Made by a program: the position numbers and the translations under genes. A DNA stretch of 64,000 nucleotides, from NCBI GenBank assembly GCA_026224775.1, contig JAMFRP010000015.1, positions 34,431 to 98,430 of the forward strand, written 5' to 3'. Positions 10,594 through 59,072 of this stretch are shown piece by piece; the first letter of the stretch is position 1, and every line of letters starts with the position of its first letter. Source of the DNA: Bacteroidota bacterium. Lineage in GTDB: Bacteria > Bacteroidota > Bacteroidia > Sphingobacteriales > Sphingobacteriaceae. The notes under the pieces are model-generated. The model worked only from the letters and a program-made list of their open reading frames with translations, searched no databases and had not been told where the DNA came from.

Positions 10594-10620
10594 ATTTATT
10601 ATGTAAGTGAAAACTCGCCG

Positions 10621-10650
10621 CAAAGGTACGTATATTAATCACATTATCAA
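10621..10650 (-). promoter_or_regulatory. Bacteroidota sigma promoter of the transglycosylase gene
   Basis: On the minus strand TTG (10648-10650), a 19-bp spacer and TACCTTTG (10621-10628) match the phylum consensus exactly. Transcription would begin about 20 bp before the ATG at 10593. Confidence 0.75.
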
Positions 10651-10812
10651 ATACTTACCAATACCTTAGTGTTTTAGGGGCTTCAAAAAGCGTCCAAAAT
10701 CGTTGTTTAAAGCCTTTAAACGCAGATTCTGATCATCAACAAAAAAATAAAATTATTGTTTAAAAAATCGTAACTTTGACCCTCACGCTGCGAAAGCGCT
10801 AAACAAAAAAAT

Positions 10813-29079: not shown

Positions 29080-29153
29080 GGAGTGGTAGTTCAGCTGGTT
29101 AGAATACATGCCTGTCACGCATGGGGTCGCGGGTTCGAGTCCCGTCCATTCCG
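29080..29153 (+). tRNA. tRNA-Asp (GTC)
   Basis: A 74-nt cloverleaf: acceptor GGAGTGG (29080-29086) pairs with CCATTCC (29146-29152), the anticodon GTC is at 29114-29116 in CCTGTCACGC, the T arm is GCGGGTTCGAGTCCCGT, and the discriminator is G at 29153. CCA is not encoded. Its 3' part (29132-29148) is duplicated at 33099-33115, marking it as an integration target. Confidence 0.97.
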
Positions 29154-29177
29154 CGGAAATAGTTTTAAAACTATTTA

Positions 29178-29213
29178 AAACGTCTAAACTAAATGGTTTA
29201 GACGTTTTTTTTT
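29178..29213 (+). terminator. Terminator of tRNA-Asp
   Basis: AAACGTCTAAAC (29178-29189) pairs with GTTTAGACGTTT (29196-29207), followed by T tract to 29213. Confidence 0.9.
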
Positions 29214-29215
29214 GA

Positions 29216-29374
29216 CTCAAAATTACTCAAAACTACTCAAGCTTAATCCCTCGGCGCGGTGCCCTATTGGGCCGCTCAATTTCAATAACTAACTTGGTCA
29301 CCTAACTGTTACCTACTGGTTATCAATTAGTTGTAATCTTGTTTTGGGCTCAAAACTACTCAAAACTATGCAAG
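29216..29374. repeat. Direct repeats near the left attachment site
   Basis: A 26-bp unit starting CTCAAAATTACTCAAAACTA occurs at 29216-29241 and again at 29349-29374 with three mismatches. Shorter relatives (CTCAAAAC...CTCAAA) occur at 29421 and 29587. Repeated short sites beside an attachment core are typical arm-type binding sites for tyrosine recombinases. The rest of 29154-29648 shows no gene. Confidence 0.6.
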
Positions 29375-29648
29375 ATTCTGGCTCATTTGAAACCTCGGAT
29401 TAGGGAGATTATCAAGCCGGCTCAAAACACCTCAAATGAATGTCCGAGGGTTCTGGTCCTACCTGAAAACCGACCCATTTTTGGTAAAAAGGTGCCGGGT
29501 TCGGTGACCCATAAAAGTGGGACGAATTCAGTCACCGATTACGGTAGTAAACAGTTGATTTTAAAGCACTTAATTTGGTTAAAAAGCTCAAAATTGCTCA
29601 TTTAACCTCAAAATTAATGCTATTGTAAAACTTAAAATCAAATGTAGT

Positions 29649-30369
29649 ATGCAAAGTACACAAAGGTTCTCAGTTCTCATCTGGGCTGACAGAAGAAAAA
29701 CAGATGCAAAGGGTAATGGACCCGTTCGCGGAGTTTAAAACTAACAGGAAAGAGGTGATCCGTGTTGCACTTACCAAAGATGAACTGAATGATATTGCCT
29801 GCAAAGAATTTGGAACTGAGCGACTGAACCATGTACGTGATATTTTTCTTTTCAGCTGTTATACTGGTTTAGCTTACATAGATGTTTACCAGTTGAGGCG
29901 GTCTGACATTGTTACAGGTGTGGACGGCGGCAAATGGATTTTTACCACTCGTCAAAAAACAGAGTCTGCTACACGCCTACCTTTGCTACCCCCGGCCTTG
30001 AAAATAATGGCTAAATATGACGATGATCCCAAATGTGTAAATAAAGGATTGGTTCTGCCAGTGCTAACTAATCAAAAAATGAATTCTTATCTGAAGGAGA
30101 TCGCTGATGGTTGCAGGATCACTAAAAATCTAACCTTTCATATTGCTCGACATACGTTCGCTACAACGGTAACTTTGAATAATGGCGTGCCTATTGAAAC
30201 GGTTTCCAAAATGTTAGGCCATAAATCGCTTAAGCAAACGCAGCATTATGCAAAGATTGTGGATTTGAAAATAAGCGAGGATATGACCGTCCTAAAAGGA
30301 AAGTTAGCGGTAATACATATAATTATGTTCGATTTTTCCTTTTTATACGCAATTGCATATAATTCTTGA
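29649..30369 (+). pseudogene. Tyrosine recombinase (integrase), internally deleted and frameshifted
   Basis: The ATG at 29649 opens a normal Bacteroidota integrase N-terminus (MQSTQRFSVLIWADRR, then KTDAKGNGPV) that runs into a stop after about 30 codons. In another frame, starting around 29720, the sequence continues as the late part of the same family: DPFAEFKTNRKEVIRVALTKDELN, then the catalytic domain with CYTGLAYIDVYQL, HIARHTFA and the tyrosine in QTQHYAKIVD. The core-binding domain (of order 150-200 residues) is missing between them. TGLAYID lacks the first catalytic Arg, as in IntDOT-type enzymes. It is considered inactive. Confidence 0.8.
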
Positions 30370-33274: not shown

Positions 33275-33841
33275 CTATGCTCCTGCCACTGGCTTTGCTG
33301 TTGCTCCATCAATTGCCCGGTTTGCCAAACCAATATTTTTAGCTTCGAGCCGAGCCAGACAAAGTTTCTTGTTTTCCAACTGTGATCGGGTATCCATCGC
33401 CATTACTTGTAAGCCCGATGGCAGGTGTATTCCCCTCACTGCTGTTTCAACCTTGTTTACATTTTGCCCACCCGGGCCCGAAGAGCGGCAGGTTTCCAGC
33501 TTTACATCCCTGGGGTTCCATTGCATCAGTTCCTTCACATCAAAAGCGGCTATGCCAACAAACCAGTTTTTGCGTTTATGGTATTTACGATACGGGCTTT
33601 GCGCTATCCATTGTATTGTACCGGCCCATTCCTTTACAAATGCATCCAGGTTATTACCAGTAGCCATCATAGTTGCAGATAGTAATGTACCATTTAACTC
33701 ACCGGCTTTATTTTCCAGCACCTCAATTTGAATACCTTGTTGTTTGGCCTGCTTCATCATCAGGCTTTGTACACAGGCTACAACCCGGCAGCATTCTGCC
33801 GGGCCTTTGCCTGATGTAATTTGTATCATCATCTTTTTCAT
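33275..33841 (-). CDS. prfH: Peptide chain release factor homologue PrfH
   Basis: 188 residues, much shorter than RF1/RF2. It has only the GGQ peptidyl-hydrolase domain (SSGPGGQNVNKVETAVRGIHLPSGL, GGQ at 124-126) plus a short N-terminal region beginning MIQITSGKGPAECCRVVACV, the PrfH hallmark. There is no stop-codon recognition domain. Known PrfH proteins recognise 30S subunits cut in the decoding centre and release the stalled peptide so that the partner RtcB can reseal 16S rRNA. It is encoded 2 bp after the rtcB stop, the standard pairing. Confidence 0.93.
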   Translation of the reverse strand: MKKMMIQITSGKGPAECCRVVACVQSLMMKQAKQQGIQIEVLENKAGELNGTLLSATMMATGNNLDAFVKEWAGTIQWIAQSPYRKYHKRKNWFVGIAAFDVKELMQWNPRDVKLETCRSSGPGGQNVNKVETAVRGIHLPSGLQVMAMDTRSQLENKKLCLARLEAKNIGLANRAIDGATAKPVAGA

Positions 33842-33843
33842 CG

Positions 33844-35244
33844 CTACCCCTTATTCATTCTAACAATACGCGGATAAAACTTACCCTGGATATCAACCAG
33901 ATTACCTTGCGCAGCAATCACTGTTTCGATATCCTTATAAGCCAAGGGATTTTCTTCAACGGTGCCGCCAATTAAGGTAACGCCAGCGTTAGTCAACAAC
34001 TTCTTCATGGCCGATACCGTCATGCTATCTTTAGCTTTTTGCCTGCTCATGGCCCGACCTGCCCCGTGCGATGCAGAGTACAAAGCATCACCGATTCCCT
34101 TACCCGATACTAGGTAAGCCGGCGTTGCCATGCTCCCGGGGATAATCCCCAACTCATCTTTGTGCGCAGGTGTTGCACCCTTGCGATGGACGATCACATT
34201 CCGGCCATCTGCCAATTGCTCTTTCCAAGCAAAGTTGTGATGGTTTTCTACCACGTGCAAAGCTTTCAAGCCTAAAGCCTTTAACAGGTTGGCATGGATG
34301 CGCTCGTGACAAGCTTTGGCATAATCACCAGCGAGGGTCATGGTCAGCCAGTACCCTTGTCCGGCTTCGCTGTTCATATCCAGCCAGGCCAATTGCTGCG
34401 CATGTCGTGGCAGTTTGCAAGTGTTCATAGCAATCTGCGTATAATGCCGTGCAATGGCCGAACCTAAACCACGGCTGCCGGAATGCGTTAGCAAAGCCGT
34501 GTACTTTTTGGCTGGCAATCCTAAAGTATTATCAGCTAACAATTCAATCTCACCAAACTCTACAAAGTGGTTGCCGTTACCTGATGTGCCTAATTGCCTT
34601 ACCGCTTTGCTACGCAGGGGTTTTAAAAATGGAATCTCATTAAACACCGGGCTATCTAAAACCACGTGCTCCTGCCGGGTACCCAAGCAGCCTTCCATAC
34701 CAAAATGGGTATGATTTTTTAAGGCTTGTTTAATTTGATATTCAAACCGTTTCAGAAAGCCATCGCTCTCATCAATAATTGACAATGCCATACGGCAGCC
34801 AATATCCATACCTACCGCGTAAGGAATCACGGCGTTATCGGTAGCCAATACACCGCCAATAGGCAAACCAAAGCCCATGTGTGCATCGGGCATTAAAGCG
34901 CCCTGTACACTTACAGGCAACAGGTTGGCCAACTCCATTTGTTTTTTGGCCGATTGCTCAATGCCCTTGCCGCCATAGATTTTGCACGACACAGGCTCAT
35001 TGCGCAATTCAAATGTCTTAAAGGATGGTGCATCCGTTTTGCCAATTACCTTTTCGGCTATTCTGTTTGTTAATTCATTATCCAGAAATGCTTCCGGATC
35101 ATTCTTAATATTCACCAACAGGTCAATTAACTGTTGCTTGCTATGGTGTTTGAAATTTTTAGCAGCTATGCCAATAACCAGGCTTCGCAGCTGATCATCA
35201 TGATAACCTATTTTACTTAAATCTTTTGTTCTTAAATTGCCCAT
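33844..35244 (-). CDS. rtcB: RtcB-type RNA ligase paired with PrfH (RtcB2 type)
   Basis: 466 residues. It ligates 2',3'-cyclic phosphate or 3'-phosphate ends to 5'-OH RNA using GTP and Mn2+. The metal and catalytic motifs are intact: GMDIGCRM, GTSGNGNHFVEFG, LTHSGSRGLGS, VENHHNFAWKEQ and the guanylylated histidine in SHGAGRAMSR. Linkage to prfH places it in the ribosome-repair branch. It lies 5 bp after the unrecognised gene 35250-35984 and 2 bp before prfH, a three-gene operon. A second, diverged paralogue is at 48801. Confidence 0.95.
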   Translation of the reverse strand: MGNLRTKDLSKIGYHDDQLRSLVIGIAAKNFKHHSKQQLIDLLVNIKNDPEAFLDNELTNRIAEKVIGKTDAPSFKTFELRNEPVSCKIYGGKGIEQSAKKQMELANLLPVSVQGALMPDAHMGFGLPIGGVLATDNAVIPYAVGMDIGCRMALSIIDESDGFLKRFEYQIKQALKNHTHFGMEGCLGTRQEHVVLDSPVFNEIPFLKPLRSKAVRQLGTSGNGNHFVEFGEIELLADNTLGLPAKKYTALLTHSGSRGLGSAIARHYTQIAMNTCKLPRHAQQLAWLDMNSEAGQGYWLTMTLAGDYAKACHERIHANLLKALGLKALHVVENHHNFAWKEQLADGRNVIVHRKGATPAHKDELGIIPGSMATPAYLVSGKGIGDALYSASHGAGRAMSRQKAKDSMTVSAMKKLLTNAGVTLIGGTVEENPLAYKDIETVIAAQGNLVDIQGKFYPRIVRMNKG

Positions 35245-47269: not shown

Positions 47270-48589
47270 CTAGTTCAACTTCGACGAATGCCCCTGACTG
47301 GCACGGATCTTCTGCCTGCTTTCATCAAAGGCAAAGCGCTTTTTACTATTAGTTTCAACTACGTGATTTAATAGTTCCAGATCTAAATTATGGCCATGCG
47401 CATTAGCCTGATTTAATAATTCATCAACATTTACCCAACCTTGCTCGTCCAGTTCAATACCAATCAATTGCGGCTGATGTCTTAGTACCAGGCTTAAAAA
47501 TTTGCTGATACTTGTTATATCTTTTTCTTTCATTGTTTCATTCAAAGTTAGGGTAATAGCAGATGGCGTTATACTGTCCTTGCCGTAGTTCTCTATTGTT
47601 TTGGTCAACTGAGCTTTTATCTGTTTTACCAGGACCCTTGGTCCCAGCACTCTCATTTTAGCGCCAAAGCCCAATAATTCCCGTTCCAGTTCAAAGTTCA
47701 TAATCACCCTGATCCTGAATACCTTTCCCGTTTCATCTTCGCTCAACAGTTTTTGCGTATGGTGCAAAGGTTTGGTCACCACGTAAGGCGCGTTAGCTGC
47801 ATCTATCCAAAATATCACCTCACAATCGCGCTGACCGGGAGATTTAGTTACCCCAATGCAATCATTATAATAAGTTGCCAGGTCAAGTGTTCTGTTCTCT
47901 CTGTAAGATTCTTCATGTTCTGTTACCATTTGTATCCTGTCTAGAGCCAGATTCATGATGTGAGCATTGCGCTTGTGCTGCATCCCTAACACAAACCAAC
48001 GGTTGCGATACTCTTTAAGCAAGTATCCACTAAAGCAAAAAGTACTGGCTTCTCTGGCCTTGAATGATTGATAGGTAATACAGATCGTTTTCTTTGCTAC
48101 GATAGCCTTGCGGATCACCTCTATCCATTCCAGCCCTTTTAAATTGTCGTTCTTCTCAAAGTCAATTACAGGTGTACTTTGTGTTTTTTGCGAATAGATC
48201 TTATCTTCCAGTTTACTCACCATTTCATTCAGATCGGTAAAATGGTTAAAGCCTTTAAACTGCTTTAACAAACCTGATACCTCGCTCAGCACCTGCATAT
48301 CCTGTTGGTTCAGCGGACTGTTGGTAATGCTATAATTCTTATCGCTGTAGGTATAATACTTTTTATCAACCACCACAATAGGCGCTTCGTAGCCCAGCTT
48401 GTTGCTGCGCATCATTTCCATATCAGCCTGCACGGTACGGCGGCTCACGCCGGTATCTATGCCCTGGTATTCGTAAATAGCGTCGCTGCAAGCATCTATC
48501 AAATCATCCAGCGTCCATTTCTTAAAACGGTTTTGCAGGCATTGGTCAATGGTGCGGTAGCGGATAAGGGCGTTGCGATTAACGGGCAT
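47270..48589 (-). CDS. WYL-domain transcriptional regulator fused to N-terminal lobe of KptA
   Basis: 439 residues from the ATG at 48589. Upstream in-frame codons come from a short GATTTCGGA repeat and are not coding. Residues 1-80 form a winged helix (RTIDQCLQNRFKKWTLDDLIDACSDAIYEYQ...SRRTVQADMEMMRSN). Residues about 150-330 are a WYL effector domain (TICITYQSFKAREAS, RWFVLGMQHKRNAHIMNLALDRI) with a WCX tail. From residue 353 (ATG 47533) the sequence is the KptA N-lobe: ISKFLSLVLRHQPQLIGIELDEQGW, RFAFDE, IRASQGHS. WYL proteins sense nucleic-acid ligands and control RNA-repair operons. Confidence 0.85.
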   Translation of the reverse strand: MPVNRNALIRYRTIDQCLQNRFKKWTLDDLIDACSDAIYEYQGIDTGVSRRTVQADMEMMRSNKLGYEAPIVVVDKKYYTYSDKNYSITNSPLNQQDMQVLSEVSGLLKQFKGFNHFTDLNEMVSKLEDKIYSQKTQSTPVIDFEKNDNLKGLEWIEVIRKAIVAKKTICITYQSFKAREASTFCFSGYLLKEYRNRWFVLGMQHKRNAHIMNLALDRIQMVTEHEESYRENRTLDLATYYNDCIGVTKSPGQRDCEVIFWIDAANAPYVVTKPLHHTQKLLSEDETGKVFRIRVIMNFELERELLGFGAKMRVLGPRVLVKQIKAQLTKTIENYGKDSITPSAITLTLNETMKEKDITSISKFLSLVLRHQPQLIGIELDEQGWVNVDELLNQANAHGHNLDLELLNHVVETNSKKRFAFDESRQKIRASQGHSSKLN

Positions 48590-48655
48590 TTTTGATTTCG
48601 GATTTCGGAAGTTCGATTTCGGAATTTTTTTTGATGAAATTAAAAAATAATTTTC

Positions 48656-48678
48656 ACTGCGCAAATACGCTGCGCACT
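48656..48678. promoter_or_regulatory. Palindromic operator between WYL gene and rtcB
   Basis: ACTGCGCA (48656-48663), AATACGC, TGCGCACT (48671-48678). The same element with its flanks (AAAAATAATT before; ATTTCT and TTTGTA after) stands before the TROVE gene at 54647-54669. It lies 67 bp before the WYL start and 122 bp before rtcB, fitting a divergent operator. Confidence 0.8.
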
Positions 48679-48751: not shown

Positions 48752-48800
48752 ATTTTGGCCCGGAGACTTTTAATCGTTAAACTTGAATACCACAATAGTT

Positions 48801-50255
48801 ATGGAAAAGGAAAAAATAGGCAACAACGAGTTAAAGGCATTAGGTATTAACGATGTGGAAGTATTGGTAAACTTTAGCCGCGTCGCTAATGGTTTATTGA
48901 AACATGGTGTAATGGATAAGACCAACATATTATTCAACTTAGAAGCTTTGATTGACGACCCTATTCCTTACGCTTTAAAGAAAGGCGGCAAATTTAAAAA
49001 TCTGGCCGAGGATGTAATTGCCATGCGTAAAGAGGGCAAGTTTGTAAAGCAAGAACGCAGCAATTTTAAGCTGAAAGAAGAAATTGCCGATTTCCCGGTA
49101 TGGGGCTTGGAAAACATTGAGGTTGGCGCGCTTACGCAAATGCGTACTGCTATACAATTACCTATTGCTGTTGCCGGCGCTTTAATGCCCGACGCGCATC
49201 AAGGTTATGGTCTGCCAATCGGTGGTGTATTGGCTACCACGGCAAATACCATTATCCCTTTCGCGGTGGGTGTTGATATTGCTTGCCGTATGTGTTTAAG
49301 CATTTATGATTTGCCTGCCGAAGCTATTGATACCGAAACCGACAAGTTGAAAAATATATTGGTGGATAACACTTACTTTGGTATGGGATGTACGACCAAA
49401 TCGTACTTTGATAGTTCTTTGTTTGATAGTAAAACCTGGGGCGAAACAAAGATAATTCGCTCATTAAAAGATAAGGCTTATGCCCAATTAGGAACCAGCG
49501 GTACCGGTAACCACTTTGTGGAATGGGGCGAATTGACCATTACTGACGGCGCTTTAAGTGATATCCCAGCCGGTAAGTATTTGGCTTTATTATCGCATTC
49601 TGGTTCACGTGGGTTTGGGGGTACCGTGGCCGACTATTACAGCCGCATAGCCATGACCAAAACCAAACTCCCTGCCGAAGCCAAACATTTGGCCTGGTTA
49701 GATCTGGATAAAGACGAAGGGCAGGAATACTGGATCGCTATGAACCTGGCCGGCGAATATGCCAGCGCCAACCACCACGAGATCCATAACAAAATTGCCC
49801 GGGCTTTGGGGGTTAAACCCATCAGCAGGATAGAGAACCATCACAACTTTGCCTGGAAAGAACAACTGGCCGATGGTACCGAAGTAATGGTACACCGTAA
49901 AGGAGCTACCCCGGCCGGCGAGGGTGTGTTAGGCATTATCCCCGGTAGTATGAGCACACCCGGCTTTTTAGTCCGCGGTAAAGGCGACGCGGCTAGCATC
50001 AACTCTGCCAGCCACGGTGCGGGCAGGGCCATGAGCCGTAGCGCAGCTTTTAATACTTTGGATAAAGCTTTGATTGCTGCTAACTTGATTGACAAACGTA
50101 TTACCCTAATGGGTAGCGATATGGATGAAGCGCCAATGGCTTATAAGGACATACACACCGTAATGGCTGCGCAGCATGATTTGGTTGAAGTATTGGCAAA
50201 GTTTGAACCGAGGATTGTTAGGATGGCTGATGCGAGGGAAAGGCCGGAGGATTGA
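48801..50255 (+). CDS. rtcB: RtcB RNA ligase of the Ro/KptA locus
   Basis: 484 residues from the ATG at 48801. All RtcB signatures are present: AGALMPDAHQGYGLPIGG, GVDIACRM, GTGNHFVEWGEL, LSHSGSRGFGGTVADYY, ENHHNFAWKEQLADG and the guanylylated histidine in SHGAGRAMSRSAA. It joins 2',3'-cyclic phosphate and 5'-OH RNA ends with GTP. It is divergent from the WYL-KptA genes and shares its operator with the TROVE gene, as in bacterial rtc loci that include Ro and Y RNAs. It is clearly distinct from the prfH-linked copy at 33844. Confidence 0.96.
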   Translation: MEKEKIGNNELKALGINDVEVLVNFSRVANGLLKHGVMDKTNILFNLEALIDDPIPYALKKGGKFKNLAEDVIAMRKEGKFVKQERSNFKLKEEIADFPVWGLENIEVGALTQMRTAIQLPIAVAGALMPDAHQGYGLPIGGVLATTANTIIPFAVGVDIACRMCLSIYDLPAEAIDTETDKLKNILVDNTYFGMGCTTKSYFDSSLFDSKTWGETKIIRSLKDKAYAQLGTSGTGNHFVEWGELTITDGALSDIPAGKYLALLSHSGSRGFGGTVADYYSRIAMTKTKLPAEAKHLAWLDLDKDEGQEYWIAMNLAGEYASANHHEIHNKIARALGVKPISRIENHHNFAWKEQLADGTEVMVHRKGATPAGEGVLGIIPGSMSTPGFLVRGKGDAASINSASHGAGRAMSRSAAFNTLDKALIAANLIDKRITLMGSDMDEAPMAYKDIHTVMAAQHDLVEVLAKFEPRIVRMADARERPED

Positions 50256-54060: not shown

Positions 54061-54578
54061 TAAATAAGTGGATCAAAAGTTTTAACTACAACTGGATCTT
54101 GGGCATCCATAAACATCTTAGCTCTGCCAAACAAACAAATTTTACCTACTGTATCAAATACATTGTGCTGGCCTTTTCCGTTTATTAAAACCTCATCGGT
54201 GCAAACGCCTTGAAGGTGGTTTTTATCGATATAATCCCAATTGTCAGCTATTTCTTCCTTAAAAACAATATTAAATGCAGGCTTTCTATATTCAATTAAA
54301 TAATTCCCTTCAGACATTATCCTTGGGTTAAAATCTGCGTGAAAATTATAGACCTGATTTAATATATTTTTTGCTTCTACTTCAATATTGTCAACCCTGA
54401 TGGTTAAAAATACTACAGTGCCAAACTTAAATACCGCCAACTGCAATTTACTGCCAGTATAATATTTAGTTGTGTTTGTAATTTTATCAATATCATTTGG
54501 TGTATTTGGCCGCCATTGTGGTAGAGGAGGAAATTGCTTTTTGTCAACTGTCTTAAAAAGGTTCTTAAACAAGCCCAT
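54060..54578 (-). CDS. Hypothetical cytoplasmic protein
   Basis: 172 residues without signal or membrane segments. The readable core is KLQLAVFKFGTVVFLTIRVDNIEVEAKNILNQVYNFHADFNPRIMSEGNYLIEY. I do not recognise the family; similar small proteins occur as immunity-like genes in Bacteroidota accessory regions. It is coupled to the membrane protein at 53500-54060 and is transcribed away from the TROVE gene, with the operator at 54647 in between. Confidence 0.55.
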   Translation of the reverse strand: MGLFKNLFKTVDKKQFPPLPQWRPNTPNDIDKITNTTKYYTGSKLQLAVFKFGTVVFLTIRVDNIEVEAKNILNQVYNFHADFNPRIMSEGNYLIEYRKPAFNIVFKEEIADNWDYIDKNHLQGVCTDEVLINGKGQHNVFDTVGKICLFGRAKMFMDAQDPVVVKTFDPLI

Positions 54579-54646
54579 AGGTAAGGTTTATAGCGCAATA
54601 TTGGAATAATAGCCGAAACCTTTTACTTTTTTTAAAAATAATTCCT

Positions 54647-54684
54647 ACTGCGCAAATACACTGCGCAGTGTCCATATTTCTTTG
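54647..54684 (+). promoter_or_regulatory. Palindromic operator and promoter region of the TROVE gene
   Basis: ACTGCGCA (54647-54654), AATACAC, TGCGCAGT (54662-54669), then TTTCTTTG (54677-54684), one base off TAnnTTTG. The core and flanks match 48656-48678. There is no TTG at -33, where the operator lies instead, suggesting activation by the bound regulator. Confidence 0.8.
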
Positions 54685-54702
54685 TATCAACATTAAAGAA
54701 AA

Positions 54703-54710
54703 AAGGAGGT
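54703..54710 (+). promoter_or_regulatory. Perfect Shine-Dalgarno of the TROVE gene
   Basis: AAGGAGGT, fully complementary to the 16S 3' end, 5 nt before the ATG at 54716. Bacteroidota genes generally lack such sites because their anti-SD is held by ribosomal proteins. It fixes the start and excludes an upstream in-frame start at 54668 that would overlap the operator. Confidence 0.85.
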
Positions 54711-54715
54711 TTACA

Positions 54716-56299
54716 ATGAAATTCAACCTGTTAAGCAAATTAAAAAACCAGACCGTCAATCACGCGGATGCCAAGGCGTTTACGCTATCGCCGGAAATGG
54801 AACTATATACCGCTGTGGTTACCTGGAGCTTAAACGACTCTTTTTATGAAAAGGACGAGGCGCGTTTAGTGCGCCTGCAAAAATTGATCACCGCGTGCGA
54901 CCCTGTGTTTGTGGGTAAACTGGCTGTATATGCCCGCACCAAAATGTATATGCGTTCGGTACCGTTGGTGCTGGTTACCGAGTTGGCTAAGCTGCACTCG
55001 GGCGACGATTTGGTCGCCCGGGTTACCGATGGCGTAATCGGCCGTGCCGATGAGATCACCGAGCTATTGGCCTGCTACGAATTGCTGAACGAGCGTAAAG
55101 GCACAAAAAAGCTGAACCGCCTGAGCAAGCAATTGCAAAAAGGTTTGTCAACAGCGTTTAATCGTTTCGACGAATACCAGTTTGGGAAATACAACCGTGA
55201 TGGCGCCATCAAATTGCGCGATGCCTTGTTTTTGGTTCACCCGAAAGCGAAGGACGAGTTGCAGCAAGTGCTGTTCAATAAAATAGTGAACGGCGACCTG
55301 CAAATCCCTTACACCTGGGAAACCGAGCTGTCGGCATTAGGGCAACTAAACTTTGATAGCGACGAGGCTAAAGCCATAGCGTTCTGCGCCAAATGGGAAG
55401 AACTGATTGACAGCGGCAAGCTGGGCTACATGGCCCTGTTGCGTAACCTACGCAACATACAGGAAGCCGGCGTAAGCTACGCGCATTTTGAAAAGGTATG
55501 CACCCGTTTGGCTAACGCTGATGAGGTTGCTAAGGCAAAGCAGTTTCCATTCCGTTATTTGGCGGCGTATCGCGAGCTGATAAATCCGGCTGTTACCAAA
55601 GTACCTGCGCAAAGCCTGGTTAAAAAGCTGACTGTTTTAATGCAGGGCCAAAACAAAGGTTACACCGGCGAGTTACTGGATGCTTTGGAAAAAGCAGTAC
55701 AGGCAAGTGCTGCCAATGTCAAAGGCTTCGGCTATGAAAACCATGTGCTGTTAGCATGCGACGTTTCGGGATCGATGCAGACACCTGTATCGGCAAAATC
55801 TAAGATCTTGCTGTACGATGTGGGTTTGATGCTGGCCATGCTGTTGCAAAGCCGTTGTAAAAACGTGGAGGTGGGTATGTTTGGTGACAAATGGAAAACC
55901 ATAGTTGTACCACGTAATAACATATTAGGTAACGTACAGGAGTTTTATCGCCGCGAGGGCGAGGTGGGTTATGCCACCAATGGCTACCTGGTTATCAAGG
56001 ATATATTACATCGCAGGGTACAAATGGACAAGGTATTTTTATTCACCGACGCCCAGTTATGGAACAGCAATAACACTGCCGACCATATCCAAACCCTGTG
56101 GTTACGCTACAAGGCCGAGGTATCGCCAAATGCGAAACTCTACCTGTTCGACCTGAAGGGTTACGGACAAGCGCCTTTGCAAATATTGCGCAGTGATGTT
56201 TACCTGGTAGCGGGTTGGAGCGACAAAGTTTTTGAGGTGTTAGCTGCTTTGGAAAACGGAGGTTCGGCGTTAGATGCCATCAATAACATAGAATTATAA
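54716..56299 (+). CDS. rsr: Ro60-like TROVE/vWA protein (Rsr)
   Basis: 527 residues. The N-terminal TROVE ring (about 15-330) includes FTLSPEMELYTAVVTWSLNDSFYE, VGKLAVYARTKMYMRSVPLVLVTEL and GYMALLRNLRNIQEAGV. The C-terminal von Willebrand A domain carries an intact MIDAS DVSGS in LLACDVSGSMQT, with later MFGDKWKT and LFTDAQLW. Ro rings bind misfolded RNA ends in the central hole and Y RNAs on the outside, and the Y RNA tethers Ro to PNPase. Seven Y-RNA-like units follow directly, which strongly supports the assignment. Confidence 0.96.
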   Translation: MKFNLLSKLKNQTVNHADAKAFTLSPEMELYTAVVTWSLNDSFYEKDEARLVRLQKLITACDPVFVGKLAVYARTKMYMRSVPLVLVTELAKLHSGDDLVARVTDGVIGRADEITELLACYELLNERKGTKKLNRLSKQLQKGLSTAFNRFDEYQFGKYNRDGAIKLRDALFLVHPKAKDELQQVLFNKIVNGDLQIPYTWETELSALGQLNFDSDEAKAIAFCAKWEELIDSGKLGYMALLRNLRNIQEAGVSYAHFEKVCTRLANADEVAKAKQFPFRYLAAYRELINPAVTKVPAQSLVKKLTVLMQGQNKGYTGELLDALEKAVQASAANVKGFGYENHVLLACDVSGSMQTPVSAKSKILLYDVGLMLAMLLQSRCKNVEVGMFGDKWKTIVVPRNNILGNVQEFYRREGEVGYATNGYLVIKDILHRRVQMDKVFLFTDAQLWNSNNTADHIQTLWLRYKAEVSPNAKLYLFDLKGYGQAPLQILRSDVYLVAGWSDKVFEVLAALENGGSALDAINNIEL

Positions 56300-56301
56300 A
56301 T

Positions 56302-56332
56302 AAAGCGTGGGGAAGCTAACGCCCCATGCTTT
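56302..56332 (+). other. Hairpin between TROVE gene and Y-RNA array
   Basis: AAAGCGTGGGG (56302-56312) pairs with CCCCATGCTTT (56322-56332), one G-U. It is followed by AAAAAG rather than U, so it looks like an RNA boundary or processing hairpin, not a terminator. Confidence 0.6.
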
Positions 56333-56347
56333 AAAAAGAAATTAAAA

Positions 56348-56473
56348 TATAAGGATGCCGTAGAATCGGGTTACTTCGCACTGGTTGGGGGTGGGCAGTG
56401 TGGCGCAAGCTATGCTGTGGGTTCGAGTCCCAAAAGCGGTCCCCCGTCCCGCGTTCGCCTGTTGCTCCTTATA
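56348..56473 (+). ncRNA. Y-RNA-like transcript 1
   Basis: Ends pair over 8 bp (TATAAGGA at 56348-56355, TCCTTATA at 56466-56473). It has the shared 5' motif GATGCCGTAG...TTACTTCG and the 3' motif TTGCT. The centre has a tRNA-like T arm, TGGGTTCGAGTCCCA. It is about 126 nt long and is the first of seven tandem units after the TROVE gene. Confidence 0.8.
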
Positions 56474-56479
56474 AAATAT

Positions 56480-56580
56480 AAAAGAAGGTGTCGTAAATAA
56501 GTCTTACTTCGACCGGGACCTGTTGGCGGGCATAGCTACGCGCAGGTAATGAATGGCTTATTGCTATTAGCCCTTCTTTT
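56480..56580 (+). ncRNA. Y-RNA-like transcript 2
   Basis: The terminal helix is AAAGAAGG (56481-56488) with CCTTCTTT (56572-56579). It has the 5' motif GTGTCGTAA...TTACTTCG, a second helix AATAAGTC with GGCTTATT, and 3' TTGCT. The centre is short and lacks a T arm, so it may keep Ro binding without the tRNA-like module. Confidence 0.8.
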
Positions 56581-56597
56581 TAAAGAAATTAAAAATA

Positions 56598-56745
56598 AAA
56601 AAGGTGTCGTAGATGAGTGTTACTTCGCATTTAACGTTCAGGTCGCCGGTTCAAGTACGGTCATTGGTTTATGCCAATGTAGCTCAGTTTGGTTAGAGCA
56701 GGAGCACCGCAAGGTGCATTTCACTTGTTGCTTTTTACCCTTTTT
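56598..56745 (+). ncRNA. Y-RNA-like transcript 3 with permuted tRNA-like domain
   Basis: The terminal helix is AAAAAGG (56598-56604) with CCTTTTT (56739-56745). It has the 5' motif GTGTCGTAG...TTACTTCG. The centre reads, in order, a T-arm-like segment (CCGGTTCAAGTACGG), a closed acceptor-like stem (CATTGG 56662-56667 with CCAATG 56674-56679), a D arm (TAGCTCAGTTTGGTTAGAGCA with the first base at 56680), and a GCAA tetraloop hairpin (GCACC-GCAA-GGTGC, 56704-56717). This is a circular permutation of a tRNA, as described for YrlA-type Y RNAs. Confidence 0.85.
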
Positions 56746-56759
56746 AAGAAACTAAAATA

Positions 56760-56880
56760 TTAAGGTGCCGTAAAATATGCGCTACTTCGTGTCGCCGGTT
56801 AGATCCCGGCCTTTGGAAGTAAATCCCATTGTAGCTCAGTTGGTAGAGCAGTGCAAACGCATATTGGCTATCGCCCTTAA
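56760..56880 (+). ncRNA. Y-RNA-like transcript 4 with permuted tRNA-like domain
   Basis: The terminal helix is TTAAGG (56760-56765) with CCTTAA (56875-56880). The second helix AATATGCG (56774-56781) pairs perfectly with CGCATATT (56858-56865). The T arm GCCGG-TTAGATC-CCGGC precedes a D arm GTAGCTCAGTTGGTAGAGC, again in permuted order. The 5' motif is GTGCCGTAA...CTACTTCG. Confidence 0.85.
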
Positions 56881-56885
56881 GAAAT

Positions 56886-56959
56886 AAAGAAGATGCCGTA
56901 GACCAGCGTTACTTCAACCTGTCACGTTTAATACGCTTACCCGATTATTGCTCTTCTTT
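56886..56959 (+). ncRNA. Y-RNA-like transcript 5 (minimal)
   Basis: At 74 nt this is the shortest unit. The terminal helix is AAAGAAGA (56886-56893) with TCTTCTTT (56952-56959), the second helix AGCGT with ACGCT, the 5' motif GATGCCGTAG...TTACTTCA, and the 3' motif TTGCT. There is no tRNA-like module: it is just the Ro-binding stem with a short loop. Confidence 0.78.
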
Positions 56960-56976
56960 TTAAAATACCTAAACCT

Positions 56977-57112
56977 AAAAAAGGTGCCGTAAACTGGTGA
57001 TACTTCGGTATGATGTTCCCTACGGGGAAAGGTGCAGATTCGAGTTCTGCCTGCAAGTAATTGTAGTAGTCTAAATCTAAAAAATCTCACCGGTTGCTTT
57101 TTGCCCTTTTTT
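56977..57112 (+). ncRNA. Y-RNA-like transcript 6
   Basis: The terminal helix is AAAAAAGG (56977-56984) with CCTTTTTT (57105-57112). The second helix ACTGGTGA (56993-57000) pairs with TCACCGGT (57087-57094). The centre has a hairpin (TTCCC-TAC-GGGGAA) and a perfect T arm GCAGA-TTCGAGT-TCTGC. Confidence 0.82.
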
Positions 57113-57120
57113 TAAAAAAT

Positions 57121-57224
57121 AATGAAAGATGTCGTAGGCGGGTGATACTTCGCCCGGTTGAATGCCGCAAAAGCGGTACAGGTTCGAATCCTGAAAGCCA
57201 CCTGCCGCTTGTTGCTCTTTCATT
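57121..57224 (+). ncRNA. Y-RNA-like transcript 7
   Basis: The terminal helix is AATGAAAGA (57121-57129) with TCTTTCATT (57216-57224). The second helix is GCGGGTG with CACCTGC. The centre has a hairpin CCGC-AAAA-GCGG and a T arm CAGG-TTCGAAT-CCTG. It is the last unit, ending 28 bp before the first RlaP gene. Confidence 0.82.
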
Positions 57225-57252
57225 TATATTTTGTAATCTTATATTATTAATC

Positions 57253-58008
57253 ATGACTGAGACTATCCTTCAAAAACTGCTCGAGCTGGAGCAGACTGAA
57301 AATATAAAAATACTGTACGCCTGCGAATCAGGTAGCCGGGCATGGGGCTTTGCTTCGCCCGATAGTGATTTTGATGTATGCTTTATATACGCGAGGCCAG
57401 TAAACGATTACCTGGGTATAACAGACCTACCCGATAATGTGGGGTTGCCTGTTAACGAGGTACTGGATATAGGCGGTTGGGACATCAAAAAATCATTAAA
57501 ACTATTTCTGAAATCAAATAGTACATTGTACGAATGGCTGCAATCGCCAATAACATATCAGGAAGATTCTGCTTTTGCTGATGATCTGCGTAAGCTGATG
57601 TCGCAATACTTTTCATTACGCTCCGGCGCTAACCACTATCTGTCGATGGCACATAATACACTTCGGGACGATCTGCAAACCGAACAGGTAAAGCTGAAGC
57701 GCTACTTTTATGCACTTCGCCCGGCATTGGCTTGCTTGTGGATCGTTATGAAGCAAACCGTCCCGCCTATGGAATTTGATAAACTGCGGATTGTTATAAC
57801 TGACTATGAAGTTCAAAACGCTATCGATGAGCTGCTGGAAAGGAAAAAGACAGCCGATGAAAAAGCTTTGATAACACCTGTCCCGGTGCTTAACCAATGG
57901 CTAAGTGATACACTTGACTGGTGCAAAGAGCGTATACCTGCGCTTCCATCCGAAAAGAAGTACCCGGACGAATTGAATAATATCTTTAGAAAGTATATCC
58001 AGCTATGA
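57253..58008 (+). CDS. RlaP/YcgL-type nucleotidyltransferase 1
   Basis: 251 residues from the ATG at 57253; an in-frame extension to 57094 would run back through a Y-RNA unit and is rejected. The polymerase-beta-superfamily core is at the N-terminus: YACESGSRAWGFASPDSDFDVCFIY (GS and SDxD), followed by IGGWDIKKSLKLFLKSNSTLYEWLQSP, typical of PF10127. Proteins of this family accompany RtcB, Ro and other RNA-repair genes and are predicted to act on RNA ends. It overlaps the next gene by 4 bp. Confidence 0.88.
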   Translation: MTETILQKLLELEQTENIKILYACESGSRAWGFASPDSDFDVCFIYARPVNDYLGITDLPDNVGLPVNEVLDIGGWDIKKSLKLFLKSNSTLYEWLQSPITYQEDSAFADDLRKLMSQYFSLRSGANHYLSMAHNTLRDDLQTEQVKLKRYFYALRPALACLWIVMKQTVPPMEFDKLRIVITDYEVQNAIDELLERKKTADEKALITPVPVLNQWLSDTLDWCKERIPALPSEKKYPDELNNIFRKYIQL

Positions 58009-59072
58009 CCTACGAACAGCTAAAACAGAAAAAAGAATTGATCATGTTGGATTGTATAAGCGGCAGCACGGCTCATAACCTGAATGTTGCTGGTTCTGAT
58101 GTGGATAAGAAAGGGATATTTATTATGCCTCAAAAGCAGCTTTATGGTTTTGAACAACAAGATCAAATAGCGAACGCAACCAACGATGAGGTTTACTTTG
58201 AGATAAGTCGTTTCCTTGAATTATTGACGAAGAATAATCCCAATATATTGGAGCTGTTAAGCACGCCCAAAGAGCATGTTTTGTTTCGCCATTCTTTAAT
58301 GGATTTGATTAAACCGGAAGATTTCCTGTCAAAACTTTGCCTAGATACTTTCGCTGGTTATGCGCAAACACAAATCAAAAAAGCTCGTGGCTTAAACAAA
58401 AAGATCAATAAGCCATCGGATGCTGAACGTAAGTCGGTATTGGATTTCTGTTTTGTAATCCATAATAATGGAAGTATCTCCTTAAAGGAATGGTTAAAAG
58501 AACATGGCTTCAGTCAGGAAGAATGTGGCTTAGTGAATCTGGATCATTTCAGGAATGTGTATTTGCTATACCATCAAAAGCAGTTGACCGAGGGTCGGTT
58601 TAAGGGAATTATATCAGGCACTGATGCAGATGATGTGCAGTTAAGTTCTGTCCCGAAAGGGTTAGAAAATATAGCTGTTATGAATTTTAACAAGGACAGT
58701 TATTCTATCTACTGCCGTGAATATAAAGAGTATCTGGAATGGGAAGAAAAGCGAAATGAGCATCGTTATCAAAGCACATTATCACATGGCAAAAGTTATG
58801 ATGCCAAGAATATGATGCACACCTTTAGGCTTTTGAGTATGGCCGAAGAGATCGCACTATATCAACAAGTGATAATTAAACGCGAGGACCGCGATTTCCT
58901 GCTAAAAATCCGCAACGGAGAGTTTGAATTTAACGACCTGATGAAAATGGTTGAAGAAAAGATGGAACGGATAAAAACGGCTTATGAGAAATCCGCCTTG
59001 CCCGATAGACCTGATATTCAAATAGCGGAAAATATTTTAGTTCAGATACGCGAAAGTTTTTATGAAATTTGA
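58005..59072 (+). CDS. RlaP/YcgL-type nucleotidyltransferase 2
   Basis: 355 residues. It is a diverged relative of the preceding gene: LDCISGSTAHNLNVAGSDVDKKGIF carries the GS...SDxD metal site, and VYFEISRFLELLTKNNPNILELLSTP matches the PF10127 helix pattern. The C-terminal 200 residues include GKSYDAKNMMHTFRLLSMAEEIA. Translation is coupled to the first by an ATGA overlap. The pair suggests a heteromer or two related RNA substrates. Confidence 0.85.
   Translation: MTYEQLKQKKELIMLDCISGSTAHNLNVAGSDVDKKGIFIMPQKQLYGFEQQDQIANATNDEVYFEISRFLELLTKNNPNILELLSTPKEHVLFRHSLMDLIKPEDFLSKLCLDTFAGYAQTQIKKARGLNKKINKPSDAERKSVLDFCFVIHNNGSISLKEWLKEHGFSQEECGLVNLDHFRNVYLLYHQKQLTEGRFKGIISGTDADDVQLSSVPKGLENIAVMNFNKDSYSIYCREYKEYLEWEEKRNEHRYQSTLSHGKSYDAKNMMHTFRLLSMAEEIALYQQVIIKREDRDFLLKIRNGEFEFNDLMKMVEEKMERIKTAYEKSALPDRPDIQIAENILVQIRESFYEI

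What the first reader, a model, noticed from the sequence alone, without database searches (positions are those of the whole stretch)
56348..57224. Tandem array of seven diversified Y-RNA-like ncRNAs behind a Ro60 gene
Seven units (74-148 nt) share a terminal helix, a 5' motif GRTGYCGTAR followed after 7-9 nt by YTACTTCG, and a 3' TTGCT, while their centres differ strongly. Units 3 and 4 have a circularly permuted tRNA-like core (T arm, closed acceptor stem, D arm), units 1, 6 and 7 have a T arm, and units 2 and 5 lack it. The terminal helices show compensatory changes (e.g. AAAGAAGG/CCTTCTTT versus ATGAAAGA/TCTTTCAT), which is strong evidence of selected RNA structure. Known bacterial loci usually have one to a few Y RNAs; a seven-member set with different effector modules suggests a Y-RNA repertoire that targets Ro to different partners.
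Basis: partly seen in the sequence, partly recalled or inferred. Interest (0 to 1): 0.93.

Follow-up and report, generated by a model that had tools for sequence, protein, structure and literature searches.

The report
Seven tRNA-mimic RNAs for Ro60
Directly behind a bacterial gene for the RNA-binding protein Ro60 lie seven small RNA genes that share one paired handle but carry different centres, most of which resemble tRNAs, or parts of them, cut and rejoined in different ways; the handle is predicted to hold Ro60 and the centres would bring it to different tRNA-handling partners.

Summary
Seven units at 56348-57223 follow Ro60 by 48 nt, on its strand. Across 54 aligned units the shared handle (two helices, an invariant unpaired C) covaries strongly: 94.3% of cells paired, against 66% shuffled and 42-53% slid. 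Seven is not exceptional: of 43 stretches around Ro60 matches (window plus 42, nearly all from its own genus), 40 hold 2-10 units; the other three have only Ro60 fragments. In a separate draw of 395 Bacteroidota genomes, 26 of 28 with Ro60 have a unit near it. No unit reaches an Rfam cut-off, but units 3-4 resemble YrlA and unit 1, weakly, Deinococcus Y RNA: these are Y RNAs. New here: the centres are different cuts of a tRNA on one handle. Units 3-4 are opened at the anticodon arm (YrlA type); unit 6's class is opened in the D loop, its D stem covarying; units 1 and 7 carry a hairpin plus T arm; units 2 and 5 show none. Near-identical handles carry different centres in different species. Expression, Ro60 binding and partners are untested.

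The parts
54716..56299 (+). Ro60 (TROVE + vWA) gene
   Evidence: Pfam TROVE 1.9e-29, vWA_Ro60 8.3e-7 on the ORF 54668-56299; full-length relatives
56301..56333 (+). hairpin between the Ro60 stop and the first unit
   Evidence: 12-bp stem, -18.6 kcal/mol with its surroundings; a stem-loop is predicted there in all 19 of the 40 array loci that I folded, though L046 and L050 have unrelated ones; no T run follows it in the window
56348..56473 (+). unit 1 (type A): handle + hairpin 56397-56416 + T arm 56417-56433, enclosed by a GGGGG/CCCCC stem; no D arm
   Evidence: R1 71.2 bits; Deinococcus_Y_RNA 19.5 bits, E 1.2, full length; 22 units of the type aligned
56481..56579 (+). unit 2 (type B1): handle with a centre lacking recognisable tRNA parts
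   Evidence: R1 56.2 bits; a near-identical handle carries a permuted tRNA centre in other species
56597..56746 (+). unit 3 (type C): T arm 56645-56661, closed acceptor, D arm 56680-56699
   Evidence: R1 89.2 bits; YrlA 24.8 bits E 0.0092; order T-D5-D3
56758..56882 (+). unit 4 (type D): T arm 56794-56810, closed acceptor, D arm 56832-56849
   Evidence: R1 75.7 bits; YrlA 29.8 bits E 0.00034; order T-D5-D3
56886..56959 (+). unit 5 (type E): handle only, minimal unit
   Evidence: R1 46.4 bits; no arm found
56977..57112 (+). unit 6 (type F): D-loop-opened tRNA mimic; D-stem 3' half 57012-57014, hairpin 57016-57029, T arm 57034-57050, closed acceptor, D-stem 5' half 57069-57071
   Evidence: R1 94.1 bits; order AC-T-D5; covariation of the class
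57122..57223 (+). unit 7 (type G): hairpin 57164-57177 + T arm 57178-57194
   Evidence: R1 81.8 bits; order AC-T; 24 units of the type aligned
57253..58008 (+). RlaP nucleotidyltransferase
   Evidence: Pfam RlaP 5.3e-80 on the ORF 57094-58008; ATG at 57253 checked
58005..59072 (+). second RlaP-like protein
   Evidence: Pfam RlaP 1.2e-18
48783..50255 (+). RtcB RNA ligase
   Evidence: Pfam RtcB 4.6e-82
47270..48664 (-). WYL regulator fused to Tpt1/KptA RNA 2'-phosphotransferase (the Tpt1 match covers profile positions 4-83 of 177)
   Evidence: Pfam PTS_2-RNA 7.3e-25, WYL 1.3e-11, WCX 1.2e-10

Best explanation
The stretch is a tandem array of seven bacterial Y-RNA genes behind Ro60, each made of one shared handle that is predicted to bind Ro60 and a centre that, in five of seven, holds tRNA-like parts arranged in one of several ways and would likely bring Ro60 to a tRNA-handling partner. 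The handle is two covarying helices around an invariant unpaired C, much like the bulged C of known Ro60 sites. The centres attach tRNA parts to the handle from different sides: units 3-4 where the anticodon arm was, unit 6 through the D loop, units 1 and 7 as a hairpin plus T arm. Shown: sequence, structure by covariation, position beside Ro60, and near-identical handles with different centres. Inferred: transcription of the array as one piece followed by processing (no promoter or terminator stands out), Ro60 binding, modification of the T loops by tRNA enzymes, and recruitment of PNPase or other tRNA-handling enzymes in an RNA-repair setting. Most likely mode of action: Ro60 plus a given Y RNA selects damaged or misfolded tRNA-like RNA for decay, or blocks competing enzymes, with each centre choosing a different partner.
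For: Handle: 19 pairs, 94.3% of cells paired vs 66.3% shuffled, 258 double-changed cells vs 69, slid controls 42-53%; column pair 13-198 is C-G 39, U-A 8, U-G 5, A-U 1 of 53, next to a C invariant in 54 of 54. Position: in 43 stretches (758 kb) taken around Ro60 matches, all 230 hits at E<=1e-4 lie <3.5 kb downstream of Ro60 on its strand; at E<=0.01 four more hits lie elsewhere. The model's 54 training units come from 30 of these 40 loci, so the independent test is the phylum draw: 26 of 28 genomes with TROVE have a hit within about 2.5 kb, 23 of them not used for the model. Of 80 named loci, the 54 searched all have at least one hit. YrlA homology: up to 62.8 bits, E 5e-12, in a distant relative's array. 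tRNA layout: T-D5-D3 in 59 of 230 units, 39 of 40 loci; acceptor strands paired 5.04 of 7 vs 3.62 shuffled over 75 candidate cores. D-loop class: of 18 units (15 aligned, 3 from other genera), 17 have all four D-stem pairs, divided between GAGC/GCUC and GAAC/GUUC. T loops keep TTCRA in 156 of 179. A PNPase domain is in the genome. Published: Rsr-Y RNA-PNPase and TruB/DusA action on YrlA (PMC8394870, PMC4726728, passages seen).
Against: No transcript, binding or phenotype data. No unit passes an Rfam cut-off. Two of seven centres have no recognisable tRNA part, and the parser found none in 42 of 230 units, so tRNA mimicry cannot be the whole purpose. The window's own unit 6 is a worn example: its D stem is 3 pairs with a G-U, in a register shifted by one that I chose after seeing the rows. 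Different centres on like handles can also be read as old duplicates lost differentially. The neighbours are not constant: RtcB in 16, WYL-Tpt1 in 14, RlaP in 10 of 42 stretches (some stretches are short), so the RNA-repair link is loose. Two of 54 named loci (L221, L229) show no T arm in any unit found.
Confidence: 0.68

Rival explanations
1. Decoy reading: the re-cut tRNAs work as baits for tRNA-cleaving toxins or phage enzymes; variety and exchange of centres follow an arms race, and Ro60 stores or delivers the baits.
For: RNA-repair setting with RtcB, Tpt1, RlaP; centres interleaved on a quick Ro60 tree, at least 5 changes, 2 forced by supported branches. A competitor role for YrlA was suggested by others (PMC7790460, passage seen).
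Against: YrlA-type units have no anticodon arm, and the 13 D-loop-class hairpins have loops of 3-8 nt, none of 7, so the target of anticodon nucleases is missing; unit types keep their order among close relatives, which is slow for an arms race. One distant species does carry an anticodon arm.
Confidence: 0.15
2. Redundancy: the units are drifting duplicates that all do the same job, tethering or gating Ro60; the centres matter little.
For: Handles are conserved while centres vary and some units have almost no centre; tandem arrays duplicate easily.
Against: Centres covary in structure, and types keep their order among close relatives, including the second copy in the same assembly.
Confidence: 0.12
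3. The array is mainly a recombination or integration platform, tRNA-like because integrases use tRNA T loops.
For: Two similar 44-nt inserts (31 of 44 identical) sit in T loops of two units in two genomes; the pattern search found no other copy in 100 genomes.
Against: Only two cases; I did not look for integrases next to arrays; handle covariation shows RNA-level selection.
Confidence: 0.03

Closest known systems
YrlA (Rfam RF02553; Salmonella and other bacteria)
   Same: Next to Ro60; terminal helix; T arm - closed acceptor - D arm order, a circularly permuted tRNA (structure 6CU1, described in PMC11472068, passages seen). Units 3 and 4 align to it; relatives up to 62.8 bits.
   Different: Below Rfam's 69-bit cut-off in every search made; here one of several layouts in an array.
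Deinococcus radiodurans Y RNA (RF01053)
   Same: Unit 1 aligns over the full model, including GGUUAC and the hairpin-plus-T-arm centre; a relative reaches 41.6 bits, E 4e-4.
   Different: 19.5 bits, E 1.2 in the window: weak; cut-off 80.
Vertebrate Y RNA Ro60 site
   Same: Helix interrupted by a single unpaired C with unpaired bases opposite (site as described in PMC4726728, passages seen).
   Different: No Rfam match at all up to E 5; centres unrelated by eye.
Salmonella rsr-yrlBA-rtcBA operon
   Same: Ro60, Y RNAs and RtcB together (PMC7790460, passages seen).
   Different: Two Y RNAs and RtcR control there; here seven, with WYL-Tpt1 and RlaP.

Membership tests
bacterial Y RNA | encoded next to Ro60 | tested here: met
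bacterial Y RNA | 5' and 3' ends pair into a long terminal helix under selection | tested here: met
bacterial Y RNA | Ro60-site-like interruption with an unpaired C | tested here: met
   invariant C in 54 of 54, neighbouring pair covaries; that it is the Ro60 site is inferred
bacterial Y RNA | at least one tRNA-like RNA per locus (from recall of Chen 2014, not read) | tested here: met
   window units 3 and 4; T arm then D arm in 39 of 40 loci, and in 47 of 54 named loci
bacterial Y RNA | bound by Ro60 in the cell | not testable with these tools
   needs pulldown
Rfam YrlA RF02553 | score at or above 69 bits | tested here: not met
   29.8 best in window, 62.8 best in relatives
Rfam Deinococcus_Y_RNA RF01053 | score at or above 80 bits | tested here: not met
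   19.5, 41.6 best in relatives
tRNA | found as tRNA gene | tested here: not met
   ARAGORN finds none in the array; an Rfam tRNA match of 26.8 bits spans units 3 and 4

The most novel reading that the evidence does not exclude
Bacteroidota keep a cut-and-rejoined tRNA kit on one Ro60 handle: the tRNA is opened at the anticodon arm, in the D loop or at the acceptor end, so that Ro60 docks on the same tRNA elbow from several sides, each version capturing a different tRNA-handling or tRNA-attacking enzyme, with centres exchanged between handles as partners change.
Probability: 0.3. Interest if true: 0.9.

Novelty: new variant of a known kind. Interest (0 to 1): 0.72.

Why it matters
Why bacterial Y RNAs look like tRNA is open. 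A natural series in which the tRNA is opened at different places on a constant Ro60 handle separates what is kept (above all the T arm) from what is dropped (anticodon loop, acceptor end), and so makes the question testable unit by unit. It also gives a covariance model that finds these RNAs, unmatched at Rfam's cut-offs, across a phylum.

Tried and rejected
Rejected: that seven is unusual. Rejected: that a centre is a recent copy of one host tRNA; D segments fit His, Gly or Arg tRNAs best, T segments Asp, His, Pro, Arg or Cys (31 distinct tRNAs from 30 of the 38 matches). Not supported: a separate promoter or terminator per unit; over 54500-57300 the scans find no more than shuffles, though Bacteroidota promoters are not covered. 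Rejected as a hit: G436, where two adjacent ordinary tRNA genes imitate the permuted order. Left open: 11 weak hits in genomes without TROVE and one strong one, G274, and two TROVE genomes without a hit (G412, G423; G412 shows a weak one, E 1.6e-4, in a smaller search).

Led nowhere: a first arm parser missed most T arms and was replaced (then 64); a first acceptor scan was too strict (then 52), and the looser one admits some false cores; solved structures gave only two TROVE sequences and no RNA contact map. The key papers on bacterial Y RNAs (Chen 2014; Sim and Wolin 2018; Wang 2018; Burroughs and Aravind 2016) are not held, so arrays or a D-loop-opened class may already be in print there; the listings of library searches, and the passages I opened, showed none.

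Slip found and mended: the first RlaP was translated one base out of frame; one search repeats it from the right ATG, with the same 10 of 42.

Dropped before counts: L040-L042 hold only Ro60 fragments and no hits (L040's contig ends there); the G040 and G073 matches and a fragment in G018 were not fetched; 39 of 230 units failed the frame parser; L043 is not on the tree; 26 of 80 loci were not searched with the model; the hairpin before the array was folded in 19 of 40 loci. Array sizes are lower bounds: the motif scan saw a few units that the model missed.

Full report
WHAT IS THERE. The window lies in G000, contig C28. Its nearest named relatives by Ro60 are Mucilaginibacter species; the genome itself carries no name here. 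Ro60 (TROVE plus vWA) ends at 56299. After a hairpin (56301-56333) seven units follow from 56348 to 57223, with 3-17 nt between them, and then two RlaP nucleotidyltransferases, a SWIM protein and a DUF6493 protein. Upstream lie RtcB and a divergent WYL-Tpt1 fusion. ARAGORN, and Rfam at its cut-offs, see nothing in the array.

HANDLE. Fifty-four units from this genus and from other families of the class were aligned. Helix 1 pairs the ends; helix 2 pairs the nucleotides between the two 5' motifs with those before the 3' TTG. In the structure as I named it, 94.3% of 918 cells pair; shuffles give 66.3% and slid partners 42-53%; 18 of 19 pairs show changes on both sides. My unit ends had been chosen with the help of pairing, which favours helix 1 at its outer edge; the inner columns were placed by the aligner from sequence. 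The pair beside the invariant unpaired C is C-G 39, U-A 8, U-G 5, A-U 1. A helix broken by a single unpaired C with bases opposite is how the vertebrate Ro60 site is described (PMC4726728, passages seen).

DISTRIBUTION. Model R1 was run over the window and 42 stretches taken around Ro60 matches. At E<=1e-4 it gave 230 hits in 40 loci, all on the Ro60 strand and all within 3.5 kb downstream; arrays number 2-10, with 6 commonest. At E<=0.01 four further hits lie outside the arrays (L071, L049, L034, L035). Thirty of the 40 loci supplied units to the model, so this shows specificity more than discovery. The three loci without hits hold only Ro60 fragments; one further locus (L043) keeps 5-6 units although only the last 60 residues of Ro60 were matched. 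The independent test is an even draw of 395 Bacteroidota genomes: 28 have TROVE and 39 have an R1 hit at E<=1e-3; 26 of the 28 are in both lists, each with a hit within about 2.5 kb of TROVE on its strand, and 23 of the 26 gave nothing to the model. In two (G239, G420) these units precede Ro60. Of 13 genomes with a hit and no TROVE, one is two adjacent tRNA genes (G436), one is strong and unexplained (G274), and 11 are weak. Among the 54 loci searched of the 80 named ones (one titled Limnohabitans, the rest Bacteroidota), all 54 have at least one hit; 53 have one behind Ro60, and L227 has five in front only.

RELATION TO KNOWN Y RNAS. In a search of the 971-base array, YrlA fits unit 4 (29.8 bits, E 3.4e-4) and unit 3 (24.8, E 0.009); Deinococcus Y RNA fits unit 1 over its whole length, but weakly (19.5, E 1.2). 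In relatives the likeness is firmer: YrlA 62.8, 59.4 and 41.3 bits in one array (L130), and Deinococcus Y RNA 41.6 bits beside a YrlA match in another (L111). None passes its cut-off. Both described bacterial Y RNA types thus seem to sit side by side in one array.

CENTRES. A parser for T arm, D-stem halves and a hairpin before the T arm gave, for 230 units: T-D5-D3 (YrlA order) 59 units in 39 of 40 loci; hairpin-T 38; D3-hairpin-T 21; D3-hairpin-T-D5 13; hairpin-T-D5 4 (window unit 6 among them); T alone 28; nothing found 42; the other 25 mixed. The D3-hairpin-T-D5 class is a tRNA opened in the D loop: after the handle come the 3' half of the D loop and stem, an anticodon-arm-like hairpin, the T arm, a closed acceptor, then the 5' half of the D stem. 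I aligned 21 units of the type: 93.1% of cells pair against 80.7% shuffled and 36-52% slid. Fifteen rows share one D-stem register. Fourteen of them have all four pairs: GAGC/GCUC in 6, GAAC/GUUC in 7, GAGC/GUUC in 1. L047 has one mismatch (GAAC/AUUC). Three more units from Siphonobacter, Fibrisoma and a MAG also pair fully. The mismatched combination GAAC/GCUC never occurs; among the 16 units that the parser names (13, 3), dealing the halves at random would avoid it in 9 of 12,870 deals (my arithmetic; kinship is ignored, and the parser's patterns limit the letters). The other six rows, the window's among them, do not fit that register; shifted by one, five of six form three pairs, the window with a G-U. 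That shift was chosen after looking. The helix as counted is therefore 76% paired, the lowest of the four.

In 156 of 179 T arms the loop is TTCRA, as in ordinary tRNA; YrlA is a substrate of TruB and DusA (PMC8394870, passages seen). One distant genome (G239, L128) holds a unit with D arm, anticodon arm (TGT loop) and T arm in normal order inside a handle: ARAGORN calls it tRNA-Thr, Rfam tRNA gives 57.3 bits and Deinococcus Y RNA 35.7 (E 0.011), while R1 gives only 25.5.

DIFFERENT CENTRES ON LIKE HANDLES. In the slot after the type-A unit, species share handles 90-95% alike but have either a centre without tRNA parts (window and six others) or a permuted tRNA centre (eight others); the centres are about 0.3-0.46 identical, no better than the background (median 0.47 over 17,955 pairs of 191 units). 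On a quick Ro60 tree (six and eight of these rows) the two are interleaved: at least five changes, two forced by well-supported branches, no more clustered than shuffled labels. Replacement inside a standing handle, or duplicates lost differently, would both do this; L055 holds both kinds.

HOW IT LIKELY WORKS. From published work, Ro60 binds the stem of Y RNA, and the tRNA-like part tethers PNPase (PMC8394870, PMC4726728, passages seen). By inference the array gives Ro60 a choice of docking centres. The setting beside RtcB, Tpt1 and RlaP suggests work on damaged tRNAs, but these neighbours vary (16, 14 and 10 of 42 stretches), whereas Ro60 and array seldom part.

WHAT IS NEW. Y RNAs as tRNA mimics, and the circular permutation of YrlA, are known (PMC11472068, passages seen). 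Arrays as the rule in this part of Bacteroidota, several tRNA layouts on one handle, the D-loop-opened class and the change of centres were not seen in the library searches named above, but the central papers were not available to me.

Noticed in passing
window 56301-56333: A strong hairpin between the Ro60 stop and unit 1; a stem-loop is predicted there in all 19 of 40 loci folded, with differing stem sequences, two of them unrelated.
   Followed up: partly
L031 (G000:C26:92000-106000): The same assembly holds a second Ro60 (94% identical over residues 37-514) with seven units, 69-92% identical to the window's in the same order. Second island or strain mixture is open.
   Followed up: partly
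L048 unit at 10595-10768; L043 unit at 7110-7251: Similar 44-nt inserts (31 of 44 identical) inside the T loop of two different units in two genomes; no other match to the pattern in 100 genomes of the genus.
   Followed up: partly
L128:1215-1345 (-): A unit with an unpermuted tRNA, anticodon loop included, inside a Y-RNA-like handle; a neighbour at 962-1089 overlaps an ARAGORN tRNA-Ser.
   Followed up: partly
window 33275-35244 (-): A second RtcB-like gene next to a release-factor-like gene; from reading the translations it looks like an RtcB-PrfH pair (names recalled, not searched).
   Followed up: no
window 54647-54669: ACTGCGCA occurs twice, 13 nt apart, upstream of Ro60; a possible operator, for example for the WYL protein.
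   Followed up: no
window 29080-30369: tRNA-Asp followed by a tyrosine-recombinase-like frame (by eye): possible edge of a mobile island.
   Followed up: no
L043, L041, L042: Ro60 matches are reduced to a fragment in these loci; L043 (end of Ro60 only) keeps its array, L041 and L042 (start only) have none.
   Followed up: partly
L209:498-1191; L227:2364-3900: Units lie in front of Ro60 instead of, or besides, behind it.
   Followed up: no
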